Below are positions 42,794 through 57,081 of a stretch of DNA of 64,000 bases, in pieces. Each line of letters starts with the position of its first letter. The first letter of the stretch is position 1. Position numbers and translations under genes: made by a program. Origin of the DNA: Marinomonas sp. SBI8L (lineage in GTDB: Bacteria; Pseudomonadota; Gammaproteobacteria; Pseudomonadales; Marinomonadaceae); contig NZ_JSEO01000005.1 in NCBI RefSeq assembly GCF_001624705.1, positions 186,001 to 250,000 on the forward strand, read 5' to 3'. The notes below the pieces were generated by a model, which was not told where the DNA came from, did no database searches, and worked only from the letters and a program-made list of their open reading frames with translations.

Positions 42794-43155
42794 GGGGACG
42801 ACATGGTTTCGACGCCGGTTACAAACCCTGAGGTGCATGTCGAGAGTGATGCGTGATCTCGTAAATCCCCCGCATCAAATATATAGTCGCAAACGACGAA
42901 AACTACGCTTTAGCAGCCTAAACCCCTGCTAGTGTGCTGCCCTCCGGTTGCTTGTAGCCTGAGACTCCGCAGTATCATAAATTACGAGATGCTAACCGAT
43001 GCCCCGCCTAGGGATAAGGTTCTAAGATCAAGTAGGCTCGCCGTTAATACCCTGTCCTTCGGGCGGTTAATGGTCAAAAAATAGAAGAGACTATGCATGT
43101 AGAGCCGATGGCAGAGGATTGGCGGACGCGGGTTCGATCCCCGCCGTCTCCACCA
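42794..43155 (+). ncRNA. ssrA: Transfer-messenger RNA (tmRNA)
   Basis: 362 bases. The 5' end GGGGACG pairs with the 3' CGTCTCC ahead of ACCA; the T-arm GGTTCGATCC is present. The tag frame at 42889-42921 encodes ANDENYALAA and a stop. The gene is complete even though a prophage is inserted at its 3' end, because the element carries an identical copy of the last bases. Confidence 0.96.
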
Positions 43156-43172
43156 CTTAAGCGGTTGATTTT
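43131..43172 (+). other. attL at the 3' end of ssrA
   Basis: Left copy of the 42-bp direct repeat, starting GGTTCGATCCCCGCCGTCTC in the tmRNA T-arm and running 17 bases past the CCA end. Confidence 0.9.
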
Positions 43173-43202
43173 TAAGGATTTTTAAGACTTAAAAATAAGC
43201 CC

Positions 43203-43220
43203 GACACACATTCGACACAC
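43203..43220. other. Candidate integrase arm site, left
   Basis: GACACACATTCGACACAC, repeated with one mismatch at 56929-56946 near the other end. Within it GACACAC occurs twice. Paired short repeats inside both att sites are typical arm-binding sites of tyrosine integrases. Confidence 0.5.
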
Positions 43221-43230
43221 CGAGTGTGTA

Positions 43231-43259
43231 AAAAAAGGAACCTATCGGTTCCTTTTTTT
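43231..43259. terminator. Terminator just inside attL
   Basis: AAAAAAGGAACC / GGTTCCTTTTTT, a perfect 12-bp stem with a TATC loop. In the lysogen it replaces the original ssrA terminator, which now lies beyond attR. Confidence 0.85.
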
Positions 43260-43282
43260 ATGGATAATTCTGAGATGATGTT

Positions 43283-44053
43283 ATGGATAACAATGATAGA
43301 AAAATAAGTTTTTTTGTAAAACTCTTAGAGTACTCAGGAACTATAATTGTAATTGGATTAATTGCCGCATGGTTTTTTTCCATCAACTCTTTTAATGCTT
43401 ACTTTGATAACTTTCTTATAGATGCATCTCAACTTGTTTCAAATGGTATAATTTGGCAATTTGCCTCACAAAAGCTCCTAAGGCTAATGAACCTAAGCAT
43501 TTTTATCATGCTGGTAGCTGTTTGCTTAATAATTATATTGAGAAACTGGAGAAAGTCATGGATTCCACCAAACCAAACTCCACTACCCAAAATAAGAATC
43601 AAATCTAAACCAAATACTATTATCAATGTTCTCTTAACATTACTCTCTACTTGTATTGCATTATTACTAATTATAATACTGCTACTGCTACTTGGTGAAG
43701 TAGGAAGATTACGAGCCAAAATAGATCAGGAAAGATTTAACAACAACAAGATCATTCCACAAAAAATAGCCATCGATAAGGCAAACAATATAATTGATTG
43801 TGTCTCATTACTCGGCTCTTTCGATAAATATACGTTTGTTATTTATCAAGATAGGAAAACAGAGCTAATAAAAAGCGATAGAATTTTATCGATCCAACCA
43901 ATGTTCAAACTTCCCCAACCACAAGAGGAATCAATTCCCATATCACAAGGATTAAATACAGGAAAGTGCAGTAAAAAAGAAGCTAAATTCTTAATTAGAG
44001 ATGGTGTGGCTTGGACATTAATAAAGTTTGTATTAGCTCCAAAAGGTTCATAA
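43283..44053 (+). CDS. AT-rich membrane protein next to attL (prophage cargo)
   Basis: 256 residues. Membrane segments near residues 15-30 and 67-86 and a third near 113-140; the rest is a polar C-terminal domain of about 110 residues. I do not recognise the family. It is on the opposite strand from the phage late genes, sits at the element boundary and is more AT-rich than the phage core, the usual signs of a cargo gene. A role in exclusion of other phages is possible but only inferred from position. The ribosome site is weak. Confidence 0.6.
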   Translation: MDNNDRKISFFVKLLEYSGTIIVIGLIAAWFFSINSFNAYFDNFLIDASQLVSNGIIWQFASQKLLRLMNLSIFIMLVAVCLIIILRNWRKSWIPPNQTPLPKIRIKSKPNTIINVLLTLLSTCIALLLIIILLLLLGEVGRLRAKIDQERFNNNKIIPQKIAIDKANNIIDCVSLLGSFDKYTFVIYQDRKTELIKSDRILSIQPMFKLPQPQEESIPISQGLNTGKCSKKEAKFLIRDGVAWTLIKFVLAPKGS

Positions 44054-44177
44054 TAAAATCATTTGAGATCCTCTAATCTCTTTATGCGTACATGATAATT
44101 CCAGAGAATATAGCTTAGTAATATAACTGAGCTATTAGCCCCTGTTCCAGTGAGTTGATTAAGCATTTCCAAATCCA

Positions 44178-44324
44178 TTAATTCACCAATTCGACCGCTT
44201 GCTCACCCACAGTGTTACCTGCCTGAGTTGCTACTGGTGCAGGTACACCAACATAAATCAATGCACTAGTAACAGCAGCACTCGCTATAAACTTAACTAA
44301 CTTTCCCGTAAAAAACTTTTTCAT
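44178..44324 (-). CDS. Small phage membrane protein (48 aa)
   Basis: From ATG 44324, chosen because AAGGA lies six bases upstream and it directly follows the stop of the preceding gene. One membrane helix (FIASAAVTSALIYVGV) with basic residues before it. Last gene of the late operon. Function unknown. Confidence 0.6.
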   Translation of the reverse strand: MKKFFTGKLVKFIASAAVTSALIYVGVPAPVATQAGNTVGEQAVELVN

Positions 44325-44325
44325 A

Positions 44326-44637
44326 TTATTCCTTAAAATGATTTTGAATTTCGCCAGCCTGAACGGCTGTTTTCCAACGTTGATATTGTTCGTCATTCAT
44401 ATTGTCCATTTTGTGACGATATTTAGAGTCAAACTCATCAAGCGTTAATGCACTGCTAACATAGTCAGAGGCTTGCTCTAAGTAATATTCACCCAAGAAC
44501 ACTGAAGCTTCCCCGACTTCCTTAGTTGTCTCTATCACTTCGGTGGCGGCTTTACGTGCTGATTGATAAAGCACAAAGCCGCCAACCGCCGCTACACCAA
44601 GCAGAATGTAAAACTGCTTGTTATTAAACGCTGCCAT
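44326..44637 (-). CDS. Phage membrane protein (103 aa)
   Basis: One N-terminal membrane helix (FYILLGVAAVGGFVLYQSA) followed by an amphipathic, acidic region. Its start overlaps the stop of the transglycosylase gene by one base. Possibly a virion membrane protein or a lysis factor; the family is not recognised. Confidence 0.65.
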   Translation of the reverse strand: MAAFNNKQFYILLGVAAVGGFVLYQSARKAATEVIETTKEVGEASVFLGEYYLEQASDYVSSALTLDEFDSKYRHKMDNMNDEQYQRWKTAVQAGEIQNHFKE

Positions 44638-45125
44638 CAGGCCACGTCTCCCCAGATTTCAGAAACATAATTTTGCGTTTCAGTTGGGGCATTTTTAAGC
44701 CATTTAGAACCGTGTTCTTTCATTGCGTTATTTACCGCAGTCGGCCCCCAGTTATAAGCTGCTAATGCAGTTTCCCAAGAGTTAAAACGTTCATTCAAGC
44801 TCGTTAGATATTGAGCTGCATAATGAATGCTTTCGATTGGGTTTCTAGGATCAACATTCTTATGCCAGCGCGGGACAATTTGCGCTATACCAACAGCACC
44901 CGCACCACTTACCGTTTCGCCAGTAATAATATCCTGACGATATCGGCTCTCTTGGTAGAGCAAACGCGCTAACAGGTACTTAGGCATGTTATGACGATAC
45001 TCAGCCGCCATAATGTCAGCTAGATAAGGCTCAGCACTGCTCGGAGGTGTCCATTTTGTTCTAGTCATAAAATAGAGGGCAACGGCGGCAAGGCTACCGA
45101 TCATTACCCACTTTCCCCCTTTCAT
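44637..45125 (-). CDS. Membrane-anchored lytic transglycosylase (SLT/GH23)
   Basis: 162 residues: an N-terminal membrane helix (about 6-20), then a Slt domain with catalytic E59 in LLYQESRY, AGAVGIAQIVPRWH, and ALAAYNWGPTAVNNAM. It would cleave peptidoglycan during DNA entry or exit. PRD1 carries a comparable virion transglycosylase (P7), and membrane-containing phages as a group have such enzymes. Confidence 0.85.
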   Translation of the reverse strand: MKGGKWVMIGSLAAVALYFMTRTKWTPPSSAEPYLADIMAAEYRHNMPKYLLARLLYQESRYRQDIITGETVSGAGAVGIAQIVPRWHKNVDPRNPIESIHYAAQYLTSLNERFNSWETALAAYNWGPTAVNNAMKEHGSKWLKNAPTETQNYVSEIWGDVA

Positions 45126-45460: not shown

Positions 45461-45487
45461 TTTCATTCCTTAAAAATTGATTAGTTA

Positions 45488-45904
45488 TTAGGCGGTTTTG
45501 ATAAAACCATTAGCATCCACAATGGTGTTTTTTGTCGATAGCAACTCACTTGGGTAATTAACACCGTTACGTTTTGAAACCGCGTAAGTTTTACCGCTCC
45601 AAGAGATAAACAGCATAACGGCTGAAGAAGTAGCACTACCCGACATAAACATTCCTACGCCATTAGTTTCATTCGTACCTTCCATTCCAATTTGAGTAGC
45701 ATTTTCTATTGAACCGCCCCCTGTACCGATCAACTGATAAATCCCATCGGGTCGCTGATCCATTAACTCACCTGACGAAACTGATCCATTTGCTAGATTT
45801 GAAACGATTTCTACATTGACTTGTTTCGCTTCTTCAAACTTCTGATCAATCTTTTGATCTAGTGCTTCTAGATCATTTTTTACCGACTGCTTCCCTACTT
45901 TCAT
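45488..45904 (-). CDS. Phage protein with N-terminal coiled coil (138 aa)
   Basis: Start ATG 45904 overlaps the stop of the repeat-bearing gene (ATGA) and has AGAGG upstream. A short N-terminal coiled coil (VKNDLEALDQKIDQKFEEAKQ) leads into a beta-rich, Gly/Ser/Asn-rich domain (DGIYQLIGTGGGS; FISWSGKTYAVSKRNG). This plan of helical stalk and beta tip resembles short phage fibres. No family recognised. Confidence 0.6.
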   Translation of the reverse strand: MKVGKQSVKNDLEALDQKIDQKFEEAKQVNVEIVSNLANGSVSSGELMDQRPDGIYQLIGTGGGSIENATQIGMEGTNETNGVGMFMSGSATSSAVMLFISWSGKTYAVSKRNGVNYPSELLSTKNTIVDANGFIKTA

Positions 45905-46653
45905 TTGATTACCTCTGTAATTAAAATATTGTCTGCTGCCACCGCCATACACGGCACGACACCAGTAAAATTGTTAAATGTGATGTACTCGCCTGAGTTG
46001 AGCGGGATACCGCCAACGGTAACGACACCTGTGTTTTCTTCTGCCGCTAATATGGTGATATCACGGCGATTTTCATTCGCTTGAATGGTGAAGCTTTCAC
46101 CCGCTGAAAATGTCTTTTGACTGGTTGCCAAACTTGAAGCGGGTTGTTCTTCAGTGCTTAAGGTTTCCGTTATTTCACGGATATTTACCACGCCAGTAAT
46201 TTGAGTTTTTAATGTCTCTGTAATTTCGCGGATATTCACCACATTCGTGATCTGAGTTTTTAGCGTTTCTGTGATCTGTCGAATGTTAAAAACCGAGCTC
46301 ATCAAAGCACCAAGCTTTTCAACAATGGGCGCGTGGATGTCTTCAGGATTTAGCATTTGTGTTTTGACTGTTTCACGGATGCCTAACACTTCTGTTAGTT
46401 GCCCATCCCCAGCCATGTACAACTTGCCTAAGCCTGTTTTAATGACAAAATCACCTGTCGCATTAGTGGCATTTCTTACCGTGAAATTTCTAAATTGGTC
46501 ATTAGATTGATACACCTCGTTTACATCCAAGTGATGAGGCTCACCATCTATTTCAATCTCAATTTCACCCGCACCACTGACATAACCGATATACTGCCCA
46601 GTCGCTGAAACATCCCAACGTTCACCCGCTTTTAGCCTAAGTTCATGTTTCAT
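45901..46653 (-). CDS. Candidate phage spike protein with 17-residue repeats
   Basis: 250 residues. A beta-rich N-terminal domain (1-85) is followed by three tandem 17-residue repeats at 121-137, 138-154 and 155-171 (core NIREITETLKTQIT), with a degenerate fourth unit near 90-100. A second beta domain (180-250) follows. A head, a repetitive stalk and a beta tip suit a trimeric spike or penton-associated protein. It overlaps the next upstream gene by four bases. The assignment is structural guesswork; no family recognised. Confidence 0.6.
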   Translation of the reverse strand: MKHELRLKAGERWDVSATGQYIGYVSGAGEIEIEIDGEPHHLDVNEVYQSNDQFRNFTVRNATNATGDFVIKTGLGKLYMAGDGQLTEVLGIRETVKTQMLNPEDIHAPIVEKLGALMSSVFNIRQITETLKTQITNVVNIREITETLKTQITGVVNIREITETLSTEEQPASSLATSQKTFSAGESFTIQANENRRDITILAAEENTGVVTVGGIPLNSGEYITFNNFTGVVPCMAVAADNILITEVIK

Positions 46654-47156
46654 TTTTTAGACCTCGCTAAAAAAGCAAAGCCCACAACCGCCGCAGCACT
46701 AACACCACCAACCACATACAACACCTTCAAATTATTCTCAGCCATTAAGTTCTGACCATTTGTTGAAACCGCCGCTGCCATACGCTCTACACGATCAGCA
46801 TTAGCAGCACTTTCTCTAACGACTAAAGCCGCCGCGCTATTTGCTTCTTCCACAGCCATTTTTGACGATGAAGACCAAGCACTGCCCACTTCATCAACTG
46901 CATATTTGGCAGTATTTTGAATACTCAAATTCGCATCTTTTGCCATGCTAACAACATGATCCATGCTCGCTAGATTGACGGCTTGATTACTTGTGATAGC
47001 TTGGCTAGCAACAGTTAAACCCGCTTGCACCGCTCCATGGTCAGTCGTGGTTACAGTGTTACCATTTCCCGCAATAACAGCTTGGCCTTGCACGCCCTGA
47101 AGGTTGTAATTAGTTGTGTTATTAGTCGTTGAGTTAGAGCTGTTTCCCTTACCCAT
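46650..47156 (-). CDS. Phage membrane protein with C-terminal anchor (168 aa)
   Basis: Start ATG 47156, with AGGAGG five bases upstream. An Asn/Ser/Thr-rich N-terminus, a long Ala-rich helical middle, and one membrane helix at the end (VLYVVGGVSAAAVVGFAFLA) with a basic tail (RSKK). Likely a virion membrane protein reaching outward to the capsid. Family not recognised. Confidence 0.65.
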   Translation of the reverse strand: MGKGNSSNSTTNNTTNYNLQGVQGQAVIAGNGNTVTTTDHGAVQAGLTVASQAITSNQAVNLASMDHVVSMAKDANLSIQNTAKYAVDEVGSAWSSSSKMAVEEANSAAALVVRESAANADRVERMAAAVSTNGQNLMAENNLKVLYVVGGVSAAAVVGFAFLARSKK

Positions 47157-47538
47157 GCCCACCTCCTAGCGACAGACGGTAAACACGCTCAACTTCTTCC
47201 CCTGCAAAGCCATACATTTGATACAAACGATGAATTGCAGGTTCGGTAGTGTGGTAACGAATCGTTTTAAAGCCTTGTTTGATAGCTGCATTTTTTAATG
47301 CAAAACCTGCTTCACGCATTCCCTTGCCACCCACATAACAAATGACTAACTCACTTCCATGGGCTGCTACTTCTCCCCGAGTAACAGCCCAAACATCAAC
47401 ATTGCTCCCTGTGATGTGGTGAAGTTGTTCAATTCCTTTTTCAACATTTGAGCGTGTTATATCAGCCCATTCACCACATGCACCGCGCAACTTATCAGGT
47501 GTGTTTTCATCCCAAGCACAGCGAGTAATTTCAATCAT
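47149..47538 (-). CDS. GNAT-like protein in the phage structural operon
   Basis: 129 residues. The plan suits a small GNAT fold: SELVICYVGGKGMREAGFALKNAAIKQGFKTIRYHTTEPAIHRLYQMYGFAGEEVERVYRL has the acetyl-CoA-loop-like region and the closing YQMYGF segment typical of these enzymes. It overlaps both neighbouring genes by a few bases and so is a regular part of the late operon. Whether it is an active acetyltransferase or a structural use of the fold is unknown. Confidence 0.6.
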   Translation of the reverse strand: MIEITRCAWDENTPDKLRGACGEWADITRSNVEKGIEQLHHITGSNVDVWAVTRGEVAAHGSELVICYVGGKGMREAGFALKNAAIKQGFKTIRYHTTEPAIHRLYQMYGFAGEEVERVYRLSLGGGHG

Positions 47539-47771
47539 TTCGCCCCCTTAAAAATGAATAACGCACCTAATGCAACAGCACCAACAACCGCCCATGGCAC
47601 CCAAGCCTGTGAAGCAGCAGAACTAGCCGCAGGGTTGTAATTACCAAAGACAGTTCCACCTACTTGGTTATTACCGCCACGGTTACTTGATGATGCACCC
47701 GCATCAATCGAGCCGCCGCCCATGTCTAAGCCGCCCATACTTCCTATTGCAGCAGCACTAGCAGGATCCAT
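47535..47771 (-). CDS. Small phage membrane protein (78 aa)
   Basis: Gly/Ser/Asn-rich N-terminus and a C-terminal membrane helix (WVPWAVVGAVALGALFIF) ending in KGAK. Same design as the 105-aa neighbour. Probably a protein of the internal virion membrane. Confidence 0.65.
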   Translation of the reverse strand: MDPASAAAIGSMGGLDMGGGSIDAGASSSNRGGNNQVGGTVFGNYNPAASSAASQAWVPWAVVGAVALGALFIFKGAK

Positions 47772-48088
47772 TATTTACCCCCTTTGGATACAAAGATGAG
47801 CGTTCCCAGAGCAACAACAGTACCGCCGCCAATCGCTAGCCATTTACCGTATTTATCCATAAAACTTGCGTTAGCAGCATTGGCCGCATCAGCTTGATTT
47901 TGTACTGCATTGGTTGCAGCAGTTGCGTTGTATTTCACAGCACTAGCGGTGGCTGTTTGAGTTGGCATGTTTGCCGAGTTATCAGGTTCATGAGAGACGC
48001 GCTCAACTTCTCGCTCAGCATAACCATCCACTAAATCAATAGATCTAGAAGTTACTTTTTCTGTTATGTCATCCCACCAACTACTCAT
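47771..48088 (-). CDS. Small phage membrane protein (105 aa)
   Basis: A charged N-terminal half, an Ala/Asn-rich centre and a C-terminal membrane helix (WLAIGGGTVVALGTLIFV) with SKGGK tail. It directly follows the capsid gene, sharing one base of its stop. Probably part of the virion membrane. Confidence 0.65.
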   Translation of the reverse strand: MSSWWDDITEKVTSRSIDLVDGYAEREVERVSHEPDNSANMPTQTATASAVKYNATAATNAVQNQADAANAANASFMDKYGKWLAIGGGTVVALGTLIFVSKGGK

Positions 48089-48948
48089 TAGCCCACCTGC
48101 GCATCAACATCAGCCAAGATATCAATCGTCTGGTTATCAGAGTCGTGATAGAGCTTGAACTGGAGTGAGTCATAAGAGGTGTTTAACGCATCAGACATAA
48201 AGCCAGAGCCGACAGGGTTAAAAATGAAATAACCGTCTTGTGGTGCTAAGTCGTATTCCGATTGCTGGATAAACTCGATAACATCGCGCTCGATTTCCAT
48301 GCGCTTAACCACGGTTCCACCTTTTCGAGCTTCCATCTCGATTTTTGAAACATCACCCTTGATGTACAAAGTTCGCAGTTTTGGCCCGCGTAAAAGCTTG
48401 TCAAAAACAATAGTGCCTTTGCTCACATTGTTGATGGTATGACGCTCGAAACGGCGCTCATTCACTCGCACTTTTTGGGCTAGAGCAGGATTACCACCAT
48501 CAAAAATAATATTGCCAGCACCATCTCGTTGAATGGACAAAGGCGAAGCGAATTTTGCATTAGCGCGAAGGTAGTAATCATTGCTAGCAGGCAAAGCAGA
48601 CGACAAACGAACACGTAATTCATGAGCATCATTTGCATGGCTCGGACGCTCTAAACTGTCTTGCCCTGGCAATGTATTCGCGGAAATATCAGCGATGTGA
48701 AATGGAATGATATTTTCAATAACAGCGCGTTTGTTATGTCGCTCCATCATCAAAATTTCATCAGCAGATAATGAAAAAGGCACGTCCGAACCATTTGCAA
48801 GTTCAATTGCTTCAATGTATTCAGGCGGGATATTTGTCATTAACAAGAAGGTTCTAAAAACCGTGTTTGCTGGTAGCGTTAAAGACAAGCGTTTGCCTTT
48901 TTGAAGCTCACCTGAAAACGGGTTTAATTCTTCATACATATGGCGCAT
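48088..48948 (-). CDS. Probable double-jelly-roll major capsid protein
   Basis: 286 residues, beta-rich, no signal or membrane helix, with a strong ribosome site (GGGGGG seven bases before ATG). Landmarks: RLSLTLPANTVFRTFLL, PPEYIEAIELANG, ADEILMMERHNKR, then in the second half NERRFERHTINN, LRTLYIKGDVSKIEME, FIQQSEYDL and a final FKLYHDSD. From memory these follow the same order as the PM2 capsid protein P2 (about 269 residues, two stacked jelly rolls); I did not align them. Position between the ATPase and a series of small membrane proteins supports the call. Confidence 0.7.
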   Translation of the reverse strand: MRHMYEELNPFSGELQKGKRLSLTLPANTVFRTFLLMTNIPPEYIEAIELANGSDVPFSLSADEILMMERHNKRAVIENIIPFHIADISANTLPGQDSLERPSHANDAHELRVRLSSALPASNDYYLRANAKFASPLSIQRDGAGNIIFDGGNPALAQKVRVNERRFERHTINNVSKGTIVFDKLLRGPKLRTLYIKGDVSKIEMEARKGGTVVKRMEIERDVIEFIQQSEYDLAPQDGYFIFNPVGSGFMSDALNTSYDSLQFKLYHDSDNQTIDILADVDAQVG

Positions 48949-48951: not shown

Positions 48952-49107
48952 TTAACCCCCCGTTACTACAGCAGCGACTTTTTTACCCGTCTTGCCTGAT
49001 TTCTTCACGGCATAAACCGCAGTACCAAAAGCAATTAAGCCAACGGCAACAGATGTAACTGTTTTCCAGTCAACAGAGCTTTTGACCTTAGTAAGTGTTT
49101 GATTCAA
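48952..49107 (-). CDS. Small phage membrane protein before the capsid gene (51 aa)
   Basis: Read from TTG 49107, which has AGGGGA six bases upstream; a longer in-frame start at 49179 lacks a site. One membrane helix (VTSVAVGLIAFGTAVYAV) followed by a Lys/Gly-rich segment (KKSGKTGKKVAA). Probable virion membrane protein. Confidence 0.55.
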   Translation of the reverse strand: MNQTLTKVKSSVDWKTVTSVAVGLIAFGTAVYAVKKSGKTGKKVAAVVTGG

Positions 49108-49161
49108 TGTTTTTCCCCTGTGGAAACGTTTATGTAATTTGCAGGGGAACTGTAGAGGGTT

Positions 49162-49241
49162 GGATACTATCGCTGTCAACGGGGGGAAAAGTGGTCTGAT
49201 AGTATCCGTATACTATTCGATACTATGGGATAGTATCGAAT
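49162..49241. promoter_or_regulatory. Cluster of ATACTAT/ATAGTAT motifs with strong hairpin
   Basis: Five copies of ATACTAT or its complement lie in 75 bases. One pair forms a 12-bp inverted repeat with a GGG loop at 49215-49241 (arm ATTCGATACTAT). Another pair, GGATACTAT at 49162 and ATAGTATCC at 49199, frames the rest. This is the gap between the ATPase and the structural genes. Possible roles are late-operon operator, terminator or replication/packaging signal. Confidence 0.5.
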
Positions 49242-49265: not shown

Positions 49266-49883
49266 TCACCCGATATACTTGAACTTAACTTTTTCAGTGT
49301 CGTTTCCCTCCATTTTGTAAAAGTTAAGAGGCTCAAGAGCACCCATTTTTTGAGGTGCAAGCCCTGTTTGGCGCTTAATATAGTGCTGATCATTAGCTTT
49401 CTGGATGCCAATATAAGTAACGCCAGCCTGAGTAATAAACGCCTTTGGTACTTCTTGCACTCGCTGAGTGCCCACAGTAAGTATGCCCCCATACTTTCGC
49501 GCCCTGCGCCAAACCTTGCCCGTCCACTTTGGCATAGTCTGTTTAAGGCCTACATCTGCGGCTTCTTCCACAATTACATCAAGCAGTTTAGTACCATCAA
49601 GCGCGGCCCATATTGCCATCATAAACCATTCAAAAGTGGCTTCGTCATCATCCCCCGCCCAACCAATACGACCACCCTTAGCCATGACGCCTTGCAAGGC
49701 TTTTAAAAAGGCTTGTTTGTCTGTGAAGTGCTTACAATTATGGTCTTTGTCAGGGTCCCAAAAAGCCGCCCTTTTAGACGACTTAATCAGGTTCATAATG
49801 GCCTGAGTTTTACCCCCGCCAGTGATGGCGGTGATAAAACGGTGAGCATTAGGTAAGGCTTTATTAGCGTTCTTGGCCAAGTT
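49266..49883 (-). CDS. Packaging-type ATPase (FtsK/HerA-A32 superfamily)
   Basis: About 205 residues from TTG 49883 (AAGGGGG five bases upstream); a longer TTG start at 49925 is possible. A Walker A variant ITGGGKTQA sits close to the N-terminus, Walker B is LLDVIVEEAADVG, and a sensor-like GGILTVGTQRVQEVP follows. Length and layout match the small genome-packaging ATPases of membrane-containing phages (PM2 P9, PRD1 P9). Zot-like ATPases of filamentous phages are longer and carry a membrane helix, which is absent here. Confidence 0.75.
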   Translation of the reverse strand, partial: NLAKNANKALPNAHRFITAITGGGKTQAIMNLIKSSKRAAFWDPDKDHNCKHFTDKQAFLKALQGVMAKGGRIGWAGDDDEATFEWFMMAIWAALDGTKLLDVIVEEAADVGLKQTMPKWTGKVWRRARKYGGILTVGTQRVQEVPKAFITQAGVTYIGIQKANDQHYIKRQTGLAPQKMGALEPLNFYKMEGNDTEKVKFKYIG

Positions 49884-50328
49884 CGCCCCCTTGCGCTTTT
49901 TCAGCTTCTTCCTGTGCGGCTTCAAGAGCTAAAATGTGAGAAGAACGCGCCGCCATGATAGCCGCACCAACATACAGCCCTGCTTTGATTTCTGGCTTTT
50001 CCATAAAGTCATCAACCCAATCAGGCATAGATTCACCATACTTTTCAGCAAGTGGAACCAAGGCCTCTTTGCCTTCTTCGATTTTCTCCTCTGGCACAGT
50101 AGCAGCAGGGTAAACTTTAGAAAGTGACCACCAAAGACCACTATTAAAACGGCCAGCCAGACGATCAGCACGGGCTAAACGTTCCGCTTCATCTTCTTCG
50201 GACTCAGCATTCTCTAATGCTTGCTCTTGCGCGGCTTCTTCTTCAGCTTCAGTAATAAGTGAATCAAGGCTTAAACTATCTTCATCGTCTAATAGTTCGT
50301 CTGTGTGTACGTCCATTTCATCAATCAT
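49864..50328 (-). CDS. Acidic phage protein (154 aa)
   Basis: From ATG 50328 with GAGGGG upstream. A highly acidic N-terminal half (HTDELLDDEDSLSLDSLITEAEEEAAQEQALENAESEEDEAERLA) and a helical second half (IKAGLYVGAAIMAARSSHILALEAAQEE) with a possible membrane-leaning helix. It overlaps the ATPase start by 20 bases. Not recognised; acidic scaffolding-like or ATPase-partner function is only a guess. Confidence 0.6.
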   Translation of the reverse strand: MIDEMDVHTDELLDDEDSLSLDSLITEAEEEAAQEQALENAESEEDEAERLARADRLAGRFNSGLWWSLSKVYPAATVPEEKIEEGKEALVPLAEKYGESMPDWVDDFMEKPEIKAGLYVGAAIMAARSSHILALEAAQEEAEKAQGGELGQER

Positions 50329-50330
50329 GC

Positions 50331-50798
50331 TTAACCCCTCGCTTTTAGTAATTCGGAACCTATCGCAGCCGCGCCGATAGTAGCGACCAATACACTCAAG
50401 CCCACCCATGGGCTAAAGTTGCTATATTTCTGCTTAGATTTAATAGTCTCGCGCCTTACCGTTGCTGGCTTTGCGGCGGGTTCTGGTGTTGGCTCTTGGA
50501 TAGGTTCCATACTATTCGCGGTACTATCAGGAATAGTAACGGGTTTAGTATCAACAACAGGCTCAACAGTATCCGCACCATAGGCCGCGACAGTCTTACT
50601 ATCTTGATAGTGTCCCACTGGTTTCATTGTCTCTCTCCAATGAGCTTGGATAGTCTTACCAGCACGTTGATCCACACCACAGTGACTACAACGCACCTGT
50701 AAAAAGTCCCCTTTGCGCTTGGTTTGCTCAACATAAGAACAACGGCCACACTGACAAACAAGCTCACCAATTACGACTGCTTTACTAGTGTTTTTCAT
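50331..50798 (-). CDS. Zinc-ribbon protein with C-terminal membrane anchor (155 aa)
   Basis: Cysteines C15, C17, C20 and C37-x2-C40 make a zinc-ribbon-like N-terminus. A Thr/Pro/Glu-rich linker (about 75-118) leads to a membrane helix (WVGLSVLVATIGAAAIGSELL) near the end. Sits between Rep and the ATPase. The DNA encoding the linker holds several ACTATC/GATAGT motifs like those at 49162-49241. Function unknown. Confidence 0.65.
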   Translation of the reverse strand: MKNTSKAVVIGELVCQCGRCSYVEQTKRKGDFLQVRCSHCGVDQRAGKTIQAHWRETMKPVGHYQDSKTVAAYGADTVEPVVDTKPVTIPDSTANSMEPIQEPTPEPAAKPATVRRETIKSKQKYSNFSPWVGLSVLVATIGAAAIGSELLKARG

Positions 50799-50976
50799 TG
50801 GCTTTTAAATCCTTTAATTCATCCACAACAGCAGTTAGCACCGCATAAGCTAAACGGGTGCTTTGTTCTGCTAATTCAACTTTCTTACCCATAGCGAAGC
50901 CGCCCAACGTTTCATTGGTTCTAATATTCTTCCCTATTTGAGCAAGTCCCTTTTCTATCTTTTCAATACGATCCAT
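50785..50976 (-). CDS. Small helical phage protein (63 aa)
   Basis: AAGGAAATC precedes the ATG. Charged amphipathic helices (MDRIEKIEKGLAQIGKNIR; STRLAYAVLTAVVDELKDLK). Overlaps the zinc-ribbon gene by 14 bases. Not recognised. Confidence 0.6.
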   Translation of the reverse strand: MDRIEKIEKGLAQIGKNIRTNETLGGFAMGKKVELAEQSTRLAYAVLTAVVDELKDLKANEKH

Positions 50977-50996: not shown

Positions 50997-52730
50997 TTAA
51001 TGATAATTTGGGGGGCTAAAATTGCCCCCCGTACAGTTATTGACACGAGTCCTAGGGAACGGCTGCGCCGCTCCTAAAAGCGAAGAGCTAGAACAAGAGC
51101 CAACCCGCTGAATCGTCCACTCATACATACGTGTAGGTAGAAACTCAGCGACAACAGAAACAAGCCCTTTCACTTTTGTCGTGGGCTCGCCAAATTGGTT
51201 ACTTTCACCTTGCTCATAAAATGGTCTTAAAGCTTGCTGCTTACCTATGCCCATTAGCTCGGTGTAACGCTTCCAGTCGTTAGTCTTGGCAGCGTTATAA
51301 ATATCAATGAAGGTTTTAGGTATTGAGTCTTTTAAGCGTCGAATTTCACGCCAGACTGTCACAGATGAAGAGCCTAAAAATTGAAATTGTCTGATACCGT
51401 GACGGCTTTTCCATGCCTGAGTACGTTCCGCAGTTTTAACAAGGTCGAGACCTGTTTCGTCATCAATGCCTACGCTTTGTCCGTTTGCGTCTACGCCGTC
51501 GATATTCTTAGCGATGTATTTAACAACGTAAGCAATAGCACCGCCTTTTTCAGGGTCTAAGAACTTCTTATCAAAGCGGCTTTCACTTGCGCCTGATTCG
51601 TCCCCGTCTACCTCAAAAGCATACTTTTCAGCAATCTCTAAAAACCTATCGCTCTGCTTGCTATCTATAAAAATAATGAGGTGCCAGTGAGGTGTGCCGT
51701 CATGGTGAGGTTCAACAGCTCTTAAGCCATAGAAGTGAATAGATTCACGCTTACAAGCCGCTCTGATTTTTGCCCACTGCTTGTTTAAATACATTTGAGC
51801 ATCTCTAGGAGAAGGGCACCCAAAGTCGTAAAACTTTTTGTTCCTATGACCTGTTTTTTTGTGAACAGCATGATATTTAGACGGGCATGTCATAGTTAGA
51901 AACCAACCGATATGACCACATTGCACAGCCAAGTATTGAAGCCCTTTAATTCTTACTGCTAGTTCTGCTTTGGTATGAGCAGGGTTTGAAATGCTCTTAG
52001 CTGCTAGCTCAGATAATAAGAAGGTTTGTTCATGCTGGTTAACCGCTTCATAGCTTTCGAGAAAAGCACGGTTCATTTGCTTTTGCTTACGAAAGCGATT
52101 GATACCCCAGCGGGAAACATAGGGAGATTCTTGATTGCAGACTTGGCCACATTCACGGCGAATGTTTTCAACCACACGGTAATGGCGTTTAGCCTGTCTT
52201 ATCCACCATTCTGGGGTGCACATACGAAGCATAAGCGCATGCACTGAATCGTCATCGTCCCATTTATCAAACAGGGCATTAACTGACTCAGCTTCACGCT
52301 TGATGAAATCGAAGAAGTGTTCAAACTGGCCGACTAATAAACCCTTAGCTGACATTTCAAAACGACGGCTTTTTTCATTTGCCCACGTTGTTAATTTGTC
52401 GCCTGTTAAATCAGTTATCCATTCCTCGCAAAACTTAAGACGATTAACAACAGTATTTAACCAAGCCATAGCAGTTTCTTGGTTGTCTCGTTTCTGCCTG
52501 CGTTCTGCCTCTTTGAGAACACAGTTACGCATTCCGGTTTGATCTACGCGAGCAATAAGCTTAAAGCGGTCAATGGCACCACGTAACCAAGAGTTCGAAG
52601 CAACATAACCTTTCTTTTGGTCTAACTCGTCAAGACGCGAGTGTAAAAAGCCCACGTCTTGAGGGCTTACACCGTCTAAAAGATCGGCACGCCATTTAAG
52701 GCAATCAGGGGTTGGAGTAGTTTGAATCAT
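50997..52730 (-). CDS. HUH-type replication initiator (phage P2 gpA-like)
   Basis: 577 residues from ATG 52730 (AGGTGG five bases upstream; GTG 52739 is in frame). Helical N-terminal half, then the rolling-circle endonuclease core: FLTMTCPSKYH, the metal-binding HUH motif H348-W-H350 in GTPHWHLIIFI, and the two-tyrosine YVVKYIAKN near residue 400. This is the superfamily-I pattern of P2 gpA, phiX174 A and PM2 P12. It would nick the circular phage genome at a specific origin and prime rolling-circle replication. Confidence 0.88.
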   Translation of the reverse strand: MIQTTPTPDCLKWRADLLDGVSPQDVGFLHSRLDELDQKKGYVASNSWLRGAIDRFKLIARVDQTGMRNCVLKEAERRQKRDNQETAMAWLNTVVNRLKFCEEWITDLTGDKLTTWANEKSRRFEMSAKGLLVGQFEHFFDFIKREAESVNALFDKWDDDDSVHALMLRMCTPEWWIRQAKRHYRVVENIRRECGQVCNQESPYVSRWGINRFRKQKQMNRAFLESYEAVNQHEQTFLLSELAAKSISNPAHTKAELAVRIKGLQYLAVQCGHIGWFLTMTCPSKYHAVHKKTGHRNKKFYDFGCPSPRDAQMYLNKQWAKIRAACKRESIHFYGLRAVEPHHDGTPHWHLIIFIDSKQSDRFLEIAEKYAFEVDGDESGASESRFDKKFLDPEKGGAIAYVVKYIAKNIDGVDANGQSVGIDDETGLDLVKTAERTQAWKSRHGIRQFQFLGSSSVTVWREIRRLKDSIPKTFIDIYNAAKTNDWKRYTELMGIGKQQALRPFYEQGESNQFGEPTTKVKGLVSVVAEFLPTRMYEWTIQRVGSCSSSSLLGAAQPFPRTRVNNCTGGNFSPPNYH

Positions 52731-52739
52731 GTTGACCAC

Positions 52740-53024
52740 CTAACAAAAGAAGGGATCAACGAGCCATTTACGGACAATCTTTATTTCACGATCATCCATC
52801 AACTTAACGCATTCAATAAAATCAAAATCAGCGTAATCGGAATTACCCATCCAGACAGAGATAAAAAAGCGAAACAAAGCTGACTCTTTTTTATCTGCCA
52901 TCTTAAGTTCACTTGTCACTGACTTAGGCTTCATACTGCCTTCTTTCTCATCCCAGAACCTTTTCAGTTCTGGGGCAAGATCAAGCATCTTAAAAAAACG
53001 TTTTTCATTTTCGTGGTTAAACAT
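52740..53024 (-). CDS. Early phage protein (94 aa)
   Basis: AAAGGAAG precedes the ATG; the stop lies nine bases before the Rep start. Helical and aromatic-rich (FFKMLDLAPELKRFWDEKEG; ESALFRFFISVWMGNSDYADFDFIECVKLM). Not recognised. Position suggests a helper in early replication or its control. Confidence 0.6.
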   Translation of the reverse strand: MFNHENEKRFFKMLDLAPELKRFWDEKEGSMKPKSVTSELKMADKKESALFRFFISVWMGNSDYADFDFIECVKLMDDREIKIVRKWLVDPFFC

Positions 53025-53052: not shown

Positions 53053-53307
53053 TTATTTCCAAGCGGGGGTATCTAAAACCTTTTGAGTTTCAGCTAAGAC
53101 ATTGACAAAAAGCTTGCCTCTAGGTGAGTGCTGAAAACGTGAAATATGACCATCATAAAGAGCCTCTCTAACTTCCCTTTCAGTCATCTTTGTTCTATTA
53201 GCCCATTCCTTAGGTGTGCAGTAAGGCGCTTCCACTTCAATTAGGACTCCATCTTTAGTCCTAATCTTCATGTTTTGTGGAGTAACGTCTGGTTTTGTAT
53301 CTTTCAT
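53053..53307 (-). CDS. Cox/excisionase-like DNA-binding protein (84 aa)
   Basis: A short winged-helix candidate: YCTPKEWANRTKMTEREVREALYDGHISRFQHSPRGKLFVNV reads as a MerR/AlpA-type helix-turn-helix that recognises DNA and ends in a wing. First gene of the lytic operon, divergent from the repressor across a shared operator region. That is the place of cro/cox/xis genes, so it likely turns off the repressor and/or directs excision. Confidence 0.65.
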   Translation of the reverse strand: MKDTKPDVTPQNMKIRTKDGVLIEVEAPYCTPKEWANRTKMTEREVREALYDGHISRFQHSPRGKLFVNVLAETQKVLDTPAWK

Positions 53308-53363: not shown

Positions 53364-53430
53364 TTTTGGGAATCTTATTTGGGAATCCTAGATAAAATAA
53401 ATTCTTTAGTCAAGAAAAGGATTCCCAAAT
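53364..53430. promoter_or_regulatory. Repressor operators between cox-like and cI-like genes
   Basis: Three copies of the core TTGGGAATC: TTTTGGGAATC at 53364, ATTTGGGAATCCT at 53377, and its exact complement AGGATTCCCAAAT at 53418-53430. The second and third form a perfect 13-bp inverted repeat with 28 bases between. Their position in the divergent promoter region fits binding by the CI-type or Cox-type protein. Confidence 0.6.
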
Positions 53431-53451
53431 TTATATATTTAAGGACGTTAT

Positions 53452-54117
53452 ATGGAAATTGATGCAGTTAAGATAATTGAGCGCATGCTTATCGCTACTG
53501 ATTGTAAGAACCCTGCTGAGCTTGCAAGGCTTTTACAAACTGGGCCAGCAACTGTAGCCAATTGGAAGAAAAGAAATATGGCTCCTTATAAAGAGATATA
53601 TAATATTTCTCGTCAATTTGGATTTTCAATGGACTGGATTCTGACAGGCAAAGGCGAACCCAAAGAAGGAAAAATTCAAGTAGTTTCAGAAGATGACGGC
53701 TATTTTCATGTACCTCAATACAGTATCGAAGCGAGTGCAGGACAAGGCACGCTGATCGAAGCAGAAACAATCGACCAGCACCTATCTTTTAAAGAGTCTT
53801 GGTTGCGTCGATCAGGCATCAATCCTACAGACCTTATTGCCATGTATGCCCGTGGCGATTCCATGGAGCCAACCATCTACAGCGGTGACTCTCTTGTAAT
53901 AGATAAAACCATGAACTCTGTAACAAGTGACGGCGGGATTTATGTCATCAACTACGATGGTGAATTGTTTGTTAAGCGTGTTCAAAAACAACTAAACGGC
54001 ACAGTGGCCATTACCTCAGACAACAAAAATTATGGGGATATTGTTATCCCATCATCCGACCTAAACACATTGCGCATAATTGGCCGTGTCGTGTGGTCTG
54101 GGCATCCGATGATTTAA
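53452..54117 (+). CDS. CI-type phage repressor with S24 peptidase domain
   Basis: 221 residues. An N-terminal helix-turn-helix (ELARLLQTGPATVANWKKR) is followed by a LexA-like self-cleavage domain: cleavage site A96-G97 in SIEASAGQGT, catalytic S137 in RGDSMEPT, K175 in ELFVKRVQ. All are intact, so induction through RecA-stimulated self-cleavage is expected. The last ~38 codons have a close relative at 59098-59212. Confidence 0.92.
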   Translation: MEIDAVKIIERMLIATDCKNPAELARLLQTGPATVANWKKRNMAPYKEIYNISRQFGFSMDWILTGKGEPKEGKIQVVSEDDGYFHVPQYSIEASAGQGTLIEAETIDQHLSFKESWLRRSGINPTDLIAMYARGDSMEPTIYSGDSLVIDKTMNSVTSDGGIYVINYDGELFVKRVQKQLNGTVAITSDNKNYGDIVIPSSDLNTLRIIGRVVWSGHPMI

Positions 54118-54136
54118 AAATAGAGGGAAGGGATTC

Positions 54137-55018
54137 ATGAATCAGGTTATTAATTGGGTAAACTATTGTTTTAGAAGTATTTTACTATGCATTACTTATT
54201 TTTTTAGTTGGTTAAAAGGTTTTTATAAACGCCATTACAATTTATCAACTATTGGCATATTAGGTACTTTTGGTTATTTCAGCTTTTTATATCAGACTCT
54301 AGGATTTGAAACAATTACATGGATGAAAGGTGCTAAAAACTTTAATGAAGTAGGAGACTTTCTTGCTGGCGTATTTGGCCCTGTAGCTTTCTTTTGGCTA
54401 ATTATCGGCTATCAAATGCAGCACTCGGAGCTAAGGCTTAATAGAAAAAGTTTAGAAAAGCAGGCAGATGAGCTGGAATATTCAAGGAAAGCCTTAGAAT
54501 TACAGGTTAATGAATTTAAGCAAAACGTTGAACTTACTAAAGATAATTTCAATTTTCAAAAAGAGATTCACAATAAAAAAGAAGCCACTCTAGAGCGAAG
54601 TAAAAAGCCTTACTTTGATAAAGTAGAAGCTAAGCTAAATGGTAATTCAATAATAATTATTAGCATTAGAAATATAGGTGGTGATATAAGAAATATAGAA
54701 ACAATAGATAAAGAAAAAAACATGCCAACAAATGAGACTATTGACTCATGCAATAAGTTTCAAACTATTACTTTACTAACAAATATCAAAATTAATATTG
54801 ATGAATATAAAAATAAAGCCAAAAATATTGGAGATTTAAATAAAGACGACAGAACTACACTTTTCCCAGATTATGAAGTTCATTATTTAGATAAAGATTT
54901 AATTAAATGGAAAGTCAATATTTCTATTTCGATTTATCTAGATGTTTCTGGGGTTTATTTCGTCGCATATTTCTCAATGTTAAATGGTGAACTTAATGTC
55001 AAAAGAGTTAATGCATGA
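54137..55018 (+). CDS. Membrane/coiled-coil protein of the lysogeny strip (cargo)
   Basis: 293 residues. Membrane segments near 12-28, 36-56 and 75-95, then a coiled coil (RLNRKSLEKQADELEYSRKALELQVNEF) and a beta-rich C-terminal domain. It lies between the repressor and integrase genes and its stop overlaps the integrase start (ATGA). AT-rich with many ATA and AGA codons, unlike the phage core. Similar membrane/coiled-coil genes occur in phage-defence and exclusion loci, but I do not recognise a named family. Expected to be expressed in the lysogen together with the repressor. Confidence 0.65.
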   Translation: MNQVINWVNYCFRSILLCITYFFSWLKGFYKRHYNLSTIGILGTFGYFSFLYQTLGFETITWMKGAKNFNEVGDFLAGVFGPVAFFWLIIGYQMQHSELRLNRKSLEKQADELEYSRKALELQVNEFKQNVELTKDNFNFQKEIHNKKEATLERSKKPYFDKVEAKLNGNSIIIISIRNIGGDIRNIETIDKEKNMPTNETIDSCNKFQTITLLTNIKINIDEYKNKAKNIGDLNKDDRTTLFPDYEVHYLDKDLIKWKVNISISIYLDVSGVYFVAYFSMLNGELNVKRVNA

Positions 55019-56028
55019 CCATTAAAAGAGTCCCAACTGGTTATGAAGTCCGTTTTCGAGTTGCTGGCCGTGGTAGTCGAACATACAAGCGCATATTCCC
55101 CACTAAGGGAGAATGCGACAGGTTCGAACGCCATACTATTGCCCAGTACGAGACTAACTCTGATTCTAAACCTTGGTTAGAAAAGCCTAAAGATATGCGC
55201 CGTGTGTCTGAACTGGTCGAGCTTTGGGATAACTCCCATGGTCACTTTTTACGTGATGGTACTCGCCGTAAAGCTAAGTTATTAAGCATGGCGGAAATGC
55301 TCGGAGACCCCGCAGGCTCTAACCTTACCAAGTTAGACTACACTCGCTGGCGCGCCACTCGATCAAAGGACGGTATCAGCCCAAAAACGTTAAATAATGA
55401 ATTAGGTTATCTCTCATCCATGTTTAACGTGCTGATCAAAGCCGAAGAGATCCACTATCCTAACCCACTTGTTAATATTGATAATGTGAAAGTGCCAGAA
55501 AATGAACTGGCCTTTCTCACCCATGATCAGATAAACGAGCTACTAGACGAAACGAAAAAATGCGATAACCCGCACGTTTACCTGATCACTAAAATATCAT
55601 TATCGACAGGGGCTAGATGGAGCGAAGCAGAAGGGCTAACCGTGCAAAGAGTACGTAATAAGAAGGTGCATTTTACCGACACCAAGAGCGGAAAAAACAG
55701 AAGCGTACCTATCACTGAAGCGCTTTATAATGAGATAAAAGAACACGCCAAAGGCACCAAGGGGAACCAGATATTTACAGCCTCTATATCCAGCTTTCGA
55801 CGCGCCCTTAAACGCACTACAATCGAACTACCCAAAGGCCAAGCCGCCCACGTATTGCGTCATACCTTTGCCAGCCATTTCATGATGAATGGAGGCAACA
55901 TACTGACTTTACAAAAGGTACTTGGCCACAGTGATATTAAAATGACAATGCGATACTCTCACCTATCGCCCGACTTTCTGGAAGAAGCCACAAGGCTGAA
56001 TCCACTATCAGAAACAGCTAGGAAATAA
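55015..56028 (+). CDS. int: Tyrosine-recombinase integrase
   Basis: 337 residues. Arm/SAM-like N-terminal part, then the catalytic domain with R201 (STGARWSEAEGL), H279-x2-R282 (HVLRHTFASH), H305 (LGHSDI) and nucleophile Y314 (MRYSHL). All catalytic residues are present. It would recombine the 42-bp core at the ssrA 3' end. Confidence 0.95.
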   Translation: MTIKRVPTGYEVRFRVAGRGSRTYKRIFPTKGECDRFERHTIAQYETNSDSKPWLEKPKDMRRVSELVELWDNSHGHFLRDGTRRKAKLLSMAEMLGDPAGSNLTKLDYTRWRATRSKDGISPKTLNNELGYLSSMFNVLIKAEEIHYPNPLVNIDNVKVPENELAFLTHDQINELLDETKKCDNPHVYLITKISLSTGARWSEAEGLTVQRVRNKKVHFTDTKSGKNRSVPITEALYNEIKEHAKGTKGNQIFTASISSFRRALKRTTIELPKGQAAHVLRHTFASHFMMNGGNILTLQKVLGHSDIKMTMRYSHLSPDFLEEATRLNPLSETARK

Positions 56029-56029
56029 C

Positions 56030-56929
56030 ATGGAAGAAAACGGAACTTTTATAGCTTTAATAACGATAAATTTAGGCGGTGTAGGGTTATTAACTACTTA
56101 TATCTTAGCTAACTACTTTTTTTACACTGATAGAATTAATGATCTTAGAATCACTATAGAGTCTGAGTTTGGAAGTTTAAAAACAAAACTATCTGAATAT
56201 AAAATTTTTGATCATATGAAATCTGAAGAATCGGATCATGGTGAAGATTACATTTCAAATTTACATAGAAAGCATGCAGAACTAAGTCGTTCATTAATAG
56301 TAGAAAAACCTTCAGAATCAGAAATCATTGAAATGGAACTTGAGTTCATTAACTTATTAGAAACTGGCTCTATTTTTCTAAAATTCATTAACATTAATTC
56401 AATAGAGAAGCTTCCCTTAACAACAAACAAAGATATAAAAAACCTTAAAAAAGAATTCGAATCAATAATATTAAACTTTGAAAACTTTCAATATTATTTC
56501 AATATTATCACTAAAGACTTCAAAAAAGATTATGACAATTTCATAAGAAAAAGTACGGAGCCAGATACTGTTTACAAAAAAGAATTCAATGATATGCGAA
56601 CAATCATAAACCGAACATTGCAGGAAACAAGAGCTAAATTAATACCTGAATTTGAAGCTTTGGTGGAAAAAACAAATAAATTTAATTTTTTATATGACAG
56701 CCAAGATAGTAAGATTAATTTTCAACACATATATTACTGCATTCAATTATCAGCGTTATTTGGAATATTACTTCCTTTAATATGTATCAACACTCTTCCT
56801 TATAATACTTCTCTATTTGATAGTAGTTATGATTTTTCGAATTTAGCAGCAGCATTGCTTTCTTTTATATCATTACTTCCATATGCGATCATTTTAAGCA
56901 AGCTACGAAGCTTCATTAAAGTAAAATAG
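56030..56929 (+). CDS. Membrane/coiled-coil protein next to attR (cargo)
   Basis: 299 residues: one N-terminal membrane helix (about 9-32), a long charged helical region with coiled-coil character (about 35-225), then two membrane helices (about 235-255 and 272-292) with a short cytosolic tail. Strongly AT-rich. It starts two bases after the integrase stop, so it may be co-transcribed. The plan recalls membrane effectors or exclusion proteins. No family recognised and no function is claimed. Confidence 0.6.
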   Translation: MEENGTFIALITINLGGVGLLTTYILANYFFYTDRINDLRITIESEFGSLKTKLSEYKIFDHMKSEESDHGEDYISNLHRKHAELSRSLIVEKPSESEIIEMELEFINLLETGSIFLKFININSIEKLPLTTNKDIKNLKKEFESIILNFENFQYYFNIITKDFKKDYDNFIRKSTEPDTVYKKEFNDMRTIINRTLQETRAKLIPEFEALVEKTNKFNFLYDSQDSKINFQHIYYCIQLSALFGILLPLICINTLPYNTSLFDSSYDFSNLAAALLSFISLLPYAIILSKLRSFIKVK

Positions 56930-56946
56930 ACACACATCCGACACAC
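56929..56946. other. Candidate integrase arm site, right
   Basis: GACACACATCCGACACAC, the counterpart of 43203-43220 with a single difference. Confidence 0.5.
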
Positions 56947-57039
56947 ACTAGATGGAAAATAAGGTAAAAGAAGGCAATAGAACCCTAAAAACATGTCTTA
57001 TATATCAGTAACTTACTGATTTTATTGAATTTAACATAA

Positions 57040-57081
57040 GGTTCGATCCCCGCCGTCTCCACCACTTAAGTGGTTGATTTT
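57040..57081 (+). other. attR
   Basis: Right copy of the 42-bp direct repeat, differing from attL at one base (T instead of C two bases after CTTAA). It holds only the last 25 bases of the ssrA sequence, so no second tmRNA is made. Confidence 0.9.

What the first reader, a model, noticed from the sequence alone, without database searches (positions are those of the whole stretch)
43131..57081. Integrated double-jelly-roll, membrane-containing phage (PM2-like) in ssrA
The element lacks tail, portal and large terminase genes. It has an HUH Rep, a small A32-type ATPase, a 286-aa beta-rich protein whose landmarks follow the order of PM2 P2, at least six single-helix membrane proteins, and a membrane-bound transglycosylase. 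Such temperate corticovirus-like elements are rarely isolated and are usually missed by tailed-phage tools. All lysogeny, replication and structural genes look intact, so it may be inducible.
Basis: partly seen in the sequence, partly recalled or inferred. Interest (0 to 1): 0.9.

Follow-up and report, generated by a model that had tools for sequence, protein, structure and literature searches.

The report
PM2-like tailless prophage in ssrA
A marine bacterium carries, at the end of its tmRNA gene, an apparently intact integrated virus of the tailless, membrane-containing PM2 type; such prophages are already known from many aquatic bacteria, but comparison with its relatives suggests that their coat gene and their DNA-packaging gene have been exchanged independently of each other.

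Summary
A 13,909-bp element lies between two copies of a 31-bp exact repeat (43131-43161, 57040-57070) at the 3' end of ssrA; the nearest held relative shows the unoccupied junction. The 286-aa protein passes both Pfam models of the PM2 coat protein P2, and its low-confidence model matches double-jelly-roll capsid proteins first. Rep, packaging ATPase, membrane proteins, spike/fibre genes, lysin, CI repressor, Cox and integrase follow the PM2 plan.

It is a new member of a known kind: PM2-like prophages with integrase and repressor, and their GNAT and fibre genes, are in print. By coat tree it lies outside the clade of named Corticoviridae and Autolykiviridae. In this genus (probably Marinomonas) 8 of 49 genomes hold such coat genes; 5 of 9 elements sit beside tmRNA.

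The less expected result concerns relatives. The block P13-P14-h-ATPase with the late-promoter region, and the block from the coat gene onward, have been reassorted: one pair shares 96% ATPase but 24% coat identity, and in another the DNA similarity ends at the coat start codon. The reassortment is well supported; how it happens is inferred. Inducibility and particle structure are untested.

The parts
42794..43155 (+). ssrA (tmRNA), integration target, complete
43131..43161 (+). left att repeat, 31 bp exact
43283..44053 (+). 256-aa accessory membrane protein (3 hydrophobic segments); found in 1 of 49 genus genomes, its own
44178..44396 (-). 72-aa single-helix protein at the end of the virion operon; lysis role inferred from position
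44326..44637 (-). 103-aa single-helix protein, PM2 P6 position (2 of 300 shuffles reach its score)
44637..45125 (-). 162-aa SLT transglycosylase in the place of PM2 P5
45125..45466 (-). 113-aa tail-fibre C-terminal-like protein (PF25670, 35.7 bits, cut-off 27)
45488..45952 (-). 154-aa fibre-like protein (PHROG 1836); separate gene from the 113-aa one, as in L001 and L059
45901..46653 (-). 250-aa spike-like protein with a short tandem repeat (46158-46272); spike role inferred from position
46650..47162 (-). 170-aa single-helix protein, homologue of PM2 gp j (0 of 300 shuffles)
47149..47538 (-). 129-aa GNAT-like protein (acetyltransferase PHROG only at E 0.047)
   Evidence: name leans on the gene order in PMC9502842
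47535..47771 (-). 78-aa single-helix protein, PM2 P8-like (1 of 300 shuffles)
47771..48088 (-). 105-aa single-helix protein in P3 position
   Evidence: by position
48088..48948 (-). major capsid protein, P2 family, double jelly roll
48952..49179 (-). single-helix protein in P7 position; ORF of 75 aa, but relatives suggest a start at an internal TTG and about 50 aa
   Evidence: by position
49163..49237 (.). four SATACTATS motifs, with a TTGACA between them: putative late promoter/operator region
   Evidence: function inferred
49266..49925 (-). 219-aa packaging ATPase (PM2 P9 homologue)
49864..50409 (-). 181-aa protein in ORF h position (19 of 300 shuffles reach its score)
   Evidence: by position
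50331..50798 (-). 155-aa Zn-ribbon-like protein, PM2 P14-like (1 of 300 shuffles)
50785..50976 (-). 63-aa protein in P13 position (no pairwise similarity)
   Evidence: by position
50997..52739 (-). 580-aa gpA-type HUH Rep (PM2 P12 homologue)
52740..53024 (-). 94-aa conserved early protein
53053..53307 (-). 84-aa Cox-like excisionase/repressor (PHROG 575)
53452..54117 (+). 221-aa CI repressor with S24 peptidase domain
54137..55018 (+). 293-aa accessory membrane protein in a variable slot between CI and int
55015..56028 (+). 337-aa tyrosine integrase
56030..56929 (+). 299-aa accessory membrane protein (3 of 49 genus genomes, own included)
57040..57070 (+). right att repeat, 31 bp exact

Best explanation
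An integrated, apparently complete temperate phage of the order Vinavirales (PM2-like, tailless, presumably with an internal membrane) of a bacterium that is probably a Marinomonas. The integrase recombines the phage with the ssrA 3' end and leaves ssrA whole (anatomy and the unoccupied junction in a relative show this). CI with an S24 domain represses and Cox opposes it (inferred from the families). On SOS induction (inferred) the element excises, the gpA-type Rep starts rolling-circle replication, the proteins in P13/P14 position switch on a late promoter between the ATPase and P7 genes (inferred from PM2 and from a motif cluster), and coat protein, membrane proteins, spike/fibre and ATPase build and fill the particle; the transglycosylase and small membrane proteins release it (inferred). 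In related prophages the structural genes behind that promoter have been exchanged independently of the regulator/packaging block in front of it.
For: P2_N and P2_C hits above cut-off; fold matches; ATPase, Rep and gp-j homology to PM2; same order as the PM2 map and as the tailless Vibrio prophage PQ189363, whose record notes a LexA-like protein, excisionase, P2-type Rep, packaging protein, P2 coat, gp-j and tail fibre in this order; att pair and unoccupied junction; CI/S24, Cox and integrase. Exchange: identities, trees and AU tests, ends of DNA similarity, motif follows the ATPase type.
Confidence: 0.95

Rival explanations
1. A defective PM2-like remnant, perhaps kept for its accessory genes; it no longer makes particles.
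For: Integrase fragments near ssrA in other genomes of the genus show that such elements decay; a CI-like fragment lies just outside the right att.
Against: The genes that I could assign are open and the att repeats are exact over 31 bp. The one candidate break, two fibre ORFs in one frame, is read as two genes: the second has its own start, and in L001 and L059 the two lie in different frames.
Confidence: 0.2
2. A filamentous (inovirus) or satellite element with an HUH Rep and small membrane proteins.
For: HUH Rep, several small single-helix proteins, size under 16 kb.
Against: P2-family coat, P9-type ATPase, SLT lysin, no Zot hit.
Confidence: 0.01
3. The ATPase/coat mismatch among relatives reflects unequal rates or assembly error, not exchange.
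For: Coat genes diverge fast; the AU test of coat data against {window, L001, L002, G008a} gives only p 0.038; the groups were named after the trees were seen. One pair, G003-G008b, agrees: ATPase 70%, coat 69%.
Against: ATPases 96% identical with coats 24% (G008b-G024) and, the other way, ATPases 27% with coats 60% (G008a-G008b). ATPase data reject {G003, G008a, G008b}, p 8.6e-91; coat data reject {G003, G008b, G046, G024, G013, G045}, p 1e-45. G003's element lies in a contig of 4.34 million bases.
Confidence: 0.04

Closest known systems
Tailless prophages of Vibrio cyclitrophicus (e.g. PQ189363; PMC11630473)
   Same: About 14 kb; LexA/CI-like repressor, excisionase, P2-type Rep, packaging ATPase, P2-family coat, gp-j and fibre in the same order; accessory genes; site-specific integration that keeps the target functional (PMC11630473, section 34).
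   Different: Sites named there are dusA and dif, here ssrA; coat 24% identical to the nearest Vibrio records found; a separate coat clade. The gene in integrase position of PQ189363 carries no note in its record.
Corticoviridae: phages PM2, GXT1010, PG21
   Same: With PM2: Rep P12, ATPase P9, gp j, probably P8 and P14, P2-family coat, gene order.
   Different: CI/Cox/integrase module and SLT lysin; coat outside their clade.
Prophage of Marinomonas L001 and viral contig L002
   Same: Coat 70 and 65%, ATPase 80 and 79% identical, same order.
   Different: Integrase 45 and 47% identical; no tmRNA in the stretches held.
Proposed family Asemoviridae (NO16)
   Same: Temperate tailless phages (PMC9966536, abstract and outline only).
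   Different: NO16 is said there to use dif-like sites and XerCD; this element carries an integrase and lies in ssrA. Sequences not compared.
P2-like tailed phages (Rep only)
   Same: gpA-type Rep, up to 39% identical (ESSI-2) among the 25 rows shown of 324, against 30% for PM2 P12.
   Different: No portal, tail-tube or baseplate protein named in the element.

Membership tests
Vinavirales (order) | P2-family double-jelly-roll coat protein | tested here: met
   Pfam P2_N 29.6, P2_C 67.4 bits, cut-off 25 each; fold matches
Vinavirales (order) | P9-type packaging ATPase upstream of the coat gene | tested here: met
Vinavirales (order) | P1-type spike homologue | tested here: inconclusive
   250-aa protein in P1 position, no pairwise similarity to PM2 P1 (125 of 300 shuffles reach it); a structure job for it was not accepted
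Vinavirales (order) | ORF h, P7, P3, P8, P10 proteins in order | tested here: inconclusive
   gp-j/P10 clear, P8 probable, h, P7 and P3 by position only
Vinavirales (order) | Particle with internal lipid membrane | not testable with these tools
   needs particles
Corticoviridae | Coat protein inside the clade of named Corticoviridae | tested here: not met
   33-row tree: PM2, GXT1010, PG21 and two Autolykiviridae across a 99/98 split; 16-row tree: PM2, GXT1010 and PG21 across 100/99
Corticoviridae | P12-type HUH Rep, as in PM2 | tested here: met
   30% over 537 residues to PM2 P12
Autolykiviridae | Coat protein inside the Autolykiviridae clade | tested here: not met
   two Autolykiviridae rows
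Autolykiviridae | DNA polymerase (named a hallmark in the abstract of PMC5894146) | tested here: not met
   none named among 24 proteins in PHROGs and 20 in Pfam; HUH Rep instead
Asemoviridae (proposed, NO16-like) | Integration at dif-like sites by XerCD (abstract of PMC9966536) | tested here: not met
   own tyrosine integrase and att at the ssrA end
Asemoviridae (proposed, NO16-like) | Coat protein close to NO16 | not tested
   NO16 record not fetched
Inoviridae | Zot/pI-type ATPase | tested here: not met
   no such hit for the ATPase

The most novel reading that the evidence does not exclude
In Marinomonas PM2-like prophages the late structural operon (coat gene and what follows, to the spike and fibre genes) is a cassette exchanged behind the late promoter, independently of the P13-P14-h-ATPase block and its operators. 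The coat-ATPase pair, which is taken as the inherited 'self' of this virus lineage, then keeps its place but not its joint ancestry, and the ATPase need not recognise one particular coat lineage. Breakpoints fall in the promoter/P7 stretch and at the coat start codon.
Probability: 0.6. Interest if true: 0.5.

Novelty: new member of a known kind. Interest (0 to 1): 0.35.

Why it matters
As an element it adds a Marinomonas-type host, integration at ssrA and one more coat clade to a virus group that is easily overlooked. The reassortment among its relatives matters more. Coat protein and packaging ATPase are treated as the inherited core ('self') of this lineage (PMC1950889) and used together as markers to find and classify it (PMC10589892). 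If they recombine inside one bacterial genus, trees built on one of the two genes, or on both joined, can disagree, and the set offers a natural test of which virion parts the packaging ATPase must recognise.

Tried and rejected
(a) The 154-aa and 113-aa fibre ORFs share a frame with stops between them, which suggested a broken gene. In L001 and L059 the two are separate ORFs in different frames, and the window's second ORF has its own ATG behind an AAGGA, so I read two genes. The pieces were searched apart.
(b) 24 of the 25 viral contigs match only residues 234-286; one search listed 18 such rows among 21. The two examined (L004, L015) are 461-aa proteins in records of 39,121 and 38,682 bases, the second having the length of Vibrio phage VvAW1. 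I left all 24 out of every count as a short shared motif; 22 of the 24 were not examined.
(c) A search of viral contigs with the 20-row coat alignment failed for lack of conserved columns.
(d) Pairwise similarity to PM2 for proteins in P13, P7, P3, P4, P1, k, l, d and e positions: none clear.
(e) Defence-system models: no hit for the three accessory membrane proteins or the GNAT-like protein.
(f) A TACC...GGTA palindrome stands in the ATPase-coat gap of 5 of 6 type B relatives (G013 lacks it by my pattern); in some it looks like the stem of a terminator, so I do not claim it as an operator.
(g) The whole element has no near match among phage records; in plasmids the coat has one distant match, 24%, in a Vibrio europaeus plasmid.
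(h) The promoter scan found fewer promoter-like sites than its shuffles (18 against 32.5) and not the putative late promoter.
Full report
What is there. The window is G000:C35:186001-250000. Its genus is probably Marinomonas: L001, titled 'uncultured Marinomonas sp.', lies on a contig of 26,685 bases, the length of G043:C37 of the same genus. tmRNA (42794-43155) is complete. A 31-bp exact repeat at its end recurs at 57040-57070; a 21-bp core of it has no third copy in the window with up to 3 mismatches. The unit is 13,909 bp. In G036, whose smpB-ssrA stretch is the closest of the genus (89%), the ssrA end runs directly into the sequence that stands right of the element here (95% over 153 bp). 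That relative also holds a partial second att, and CI and integrase fragments further on, so its site is free of this element but not pristine.

Gene content. Leftward, from the repressor side: Cox-like (PHROG 575), a 94-aa protein, gpA-type Rep (PF05840), 63-aa, 155-aa Zn-ribbon-like, 181-aa, ATPase, 75-aa, coat, 105-aa, 78-aa, GNAT-like, gp-j homologue, 250-aa spike-like, two fibre-like proteins, SLT lysin, 103-aa and 72-aa. Rightward: CI with S24, a 293-aa membrane protein, integrase, a 299-aa membrane protein; a 256-aa membrane protein lies at the left end. The order follows PM2, P12-P13-P14-h-P9-P7-P2-P3-P4-P8-j-P1-P5-P6, except that nothing was assigned to P4, a GNAT-like gene and two fibre genes are added and the lysin is of another family. 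Pairwise similarity to PM2 over 19 pairs: none of 300 shuffles reached Rep-P12, ATPase-P9 or gp j; 1 reached P8 and P14, 2 P6, 3 the lysin-P5 pair, 6 coat-P2, 17-19 l and h, many the rest. The coat is tied to P2 by Pfam profiles.

How it works. The S24 domain of CI and the Cox and integrase families point to SOS-inducible lysogeny; the Rep family points to rolling-circle replication. The PM2 record states that P13 and P14 regulate the structural genes, and PMC1950889 places the late promoter between genes IX and II, beside VII. In the window that gap holds a TTGACA and four copies of SATACTATS in 75 bp (49163-49237); the whole window has 6 copies against a mean of 1.30, and none of 100 shuffles reached 6. 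The promoter scan did not flag it, as an activator-dependent promoter might not be. Excision, replication, late activation and particle formation are inferred.

ssrA as a hot spot. All 49 genus genomes match the ssrA query. P2_C is found in 8 of 49 genomes, own included, at nine places, and in 16 of 293 genomes of an order sample. Of the nine elements (window and L052-L059) five have tmRNA within the stretch held (window, L052, L054, L056, L058) and four do not (L053, L055, L057, L059); L059 has a 78% identical integrase all the same. In seven genomes without P2_C (G001, G006, G010, G015, G026, G035, G037) an integrase 54-80% identical, aligned over 268 residues or more, lies within 10 kb of ssrA (my comparison); others hold fragments. 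In the stretches L094, L095, L103 and L104 from four of these, and L105 from G040 away from ssrA, no virion protein of the window was matched; L103 is only 5 kb long. So the site and the integration module are shared with other elements.

Accessory slot. Homologues of the 293-aa protein occur in 15 of 49 genomes, own included. In 13 of the 15 the match lies within 500 bp of an integrase or integrase fragment (my comparison; exceptions G025 and G037). Matches mostly cover part of residues 30-210, around the hydrophobic segment at 72-90. A role in excluding other phages is a guess. The 299-aa protein is in 3 of 49 genomes, the 256-aa one in 1 of 49, own included.

Relationships. In a 33-row coat tree the window sits with L001 (99/92), then L002 (100/99), then G003 and both G008 elements (100/100), in the half that also holds the four Vibrio cyclitrophicus rows; PM2, GXT1010, PG21 and two Autolykiviridae lie across a 99/98 split. 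The 16-row tree agrees for PM2, GXT1010 and PG21 (100/99). Whether this is one of the unnamed clades of PMC9502842 I did not test.

Reassortment of two blocks. Ten elements were compared; P13, P14, h and P7 are positional labels. ATPases fall into type A (window, L001, L002, G008a; 100/99) and type B (G003, G008b, G046, G024, G013, G045), coats into lineage 1 (window, L001, L002), 2 (G003, G008a, G008b) and 3 (G046, G024, G013, G045). Combinations found: A1, A2, B2, B3. Five pairs were compared protein by protein: G008b-G024 P13 74%, P14 68%, h 77%, ATPase 96%, coat 24%; G008a-window 69, 66, 64 and 80%, P7 59%, coat 29%; G003-G013 54, 50, 60 and 82%, coat 20%; G008a-G008b ATPase 27%, P7 41%, coat 60%, downstream proteins 35-71%; G003-G008b, the same combination, ATPase 70%, coat 69%. 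ATPase data reject {G003, G008a, G008b} (p 8.6e-91); coat data reject {G003, G008b, G046, G024, G013, G045} (p 1e-45) and only weakly {window, L001, L002, G008a} (p 0.038). The groups were named after the trees were seen, and the ATPase tree has long branches. DNA similarity between G008a and the window, and between G008a and L002, ends at the coat ATG; G008b-G024 ends just before P7; G003-G013 near the ATPase end. The motif [CG]ATACTAT, either strand, occurs 3-4 times in the ATPase-coat gap of 4 of 4 type A elements, G008a included, and in 0 of 6 type B elements. So the promoter region travels with the regulators and ATPase, while the coat gene and what follows are exchanged. [quoted passage not shown] here the block keeps its order but not its joint ancestry.

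Literature. Read: PMC1950889 section 5 and passages; PMC11630473 abstract, sections 30, 34, 35 and a term search without hits; PMC5894146 abstract and section 11; PMC9502842 section 16 (part 1 of 2), section 26 (figure legends) and passages; PMC10589892 section 16 and passages; PMC9966536 abstract and outline. PMC9502842 already describes the GNAT, fibre and MltE-type lysin genes; PMC1950889 already reports integrases, one P2-like, and CI-type repressors; PMC11630473 reports replication of tailless Vibrio prophages on induction, target repair and accessory hot spots. The searches listed nothing that by title or start of abstract reports an ssrA site or coat/ATPase reassortment in this group; 15 of the 22 papers were listed, only open-licence papers were searched, and most listed papers were not opened.

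Noticed in passing
57402-58756 (-) and 58937-59213: A HipA-like and HipB-like pair (names recalled, no family search named HipA) and, beyond it, fragments that match the CI region of an ssrA integrant in G036 (59105-59213 at 88%) lie right of the right att: perhaps the remains of an older element at the same site.
   Followed up: partly
L092 4030-4400 and 5637-7848: In G036 the ssrA end is followed by a second partial att copy and later by CI and integrase fragments, a trace of repeated integration and decay at ssrA.
   Followed up: partly
L094, L095, L103, L104, L105: Stretches with a 72-80% identical integrase and part of a CI match but no match to the window's virion proteins; what they are was not worked out.
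   Followed up: no
46158-46272 (window), L001 12646-13590, L057 11224-12258: The spike-like protein carries a tandem repeat whose unit and copy number differ between relatives, as in a shaft of variable length (the relatives by eye).
   Followed up: no
48088-48948, residues 237-280, against L015 and L004: A 44-residue stretch of the coat resembles (39-46%) part of a 461-aa protein in contigs of tailed-phage size; taken as a short shared motif.
   Followed up: partly
57200-57260: A short tandem run of GCTGTTTA-type units right of the att.
   Followed up: no
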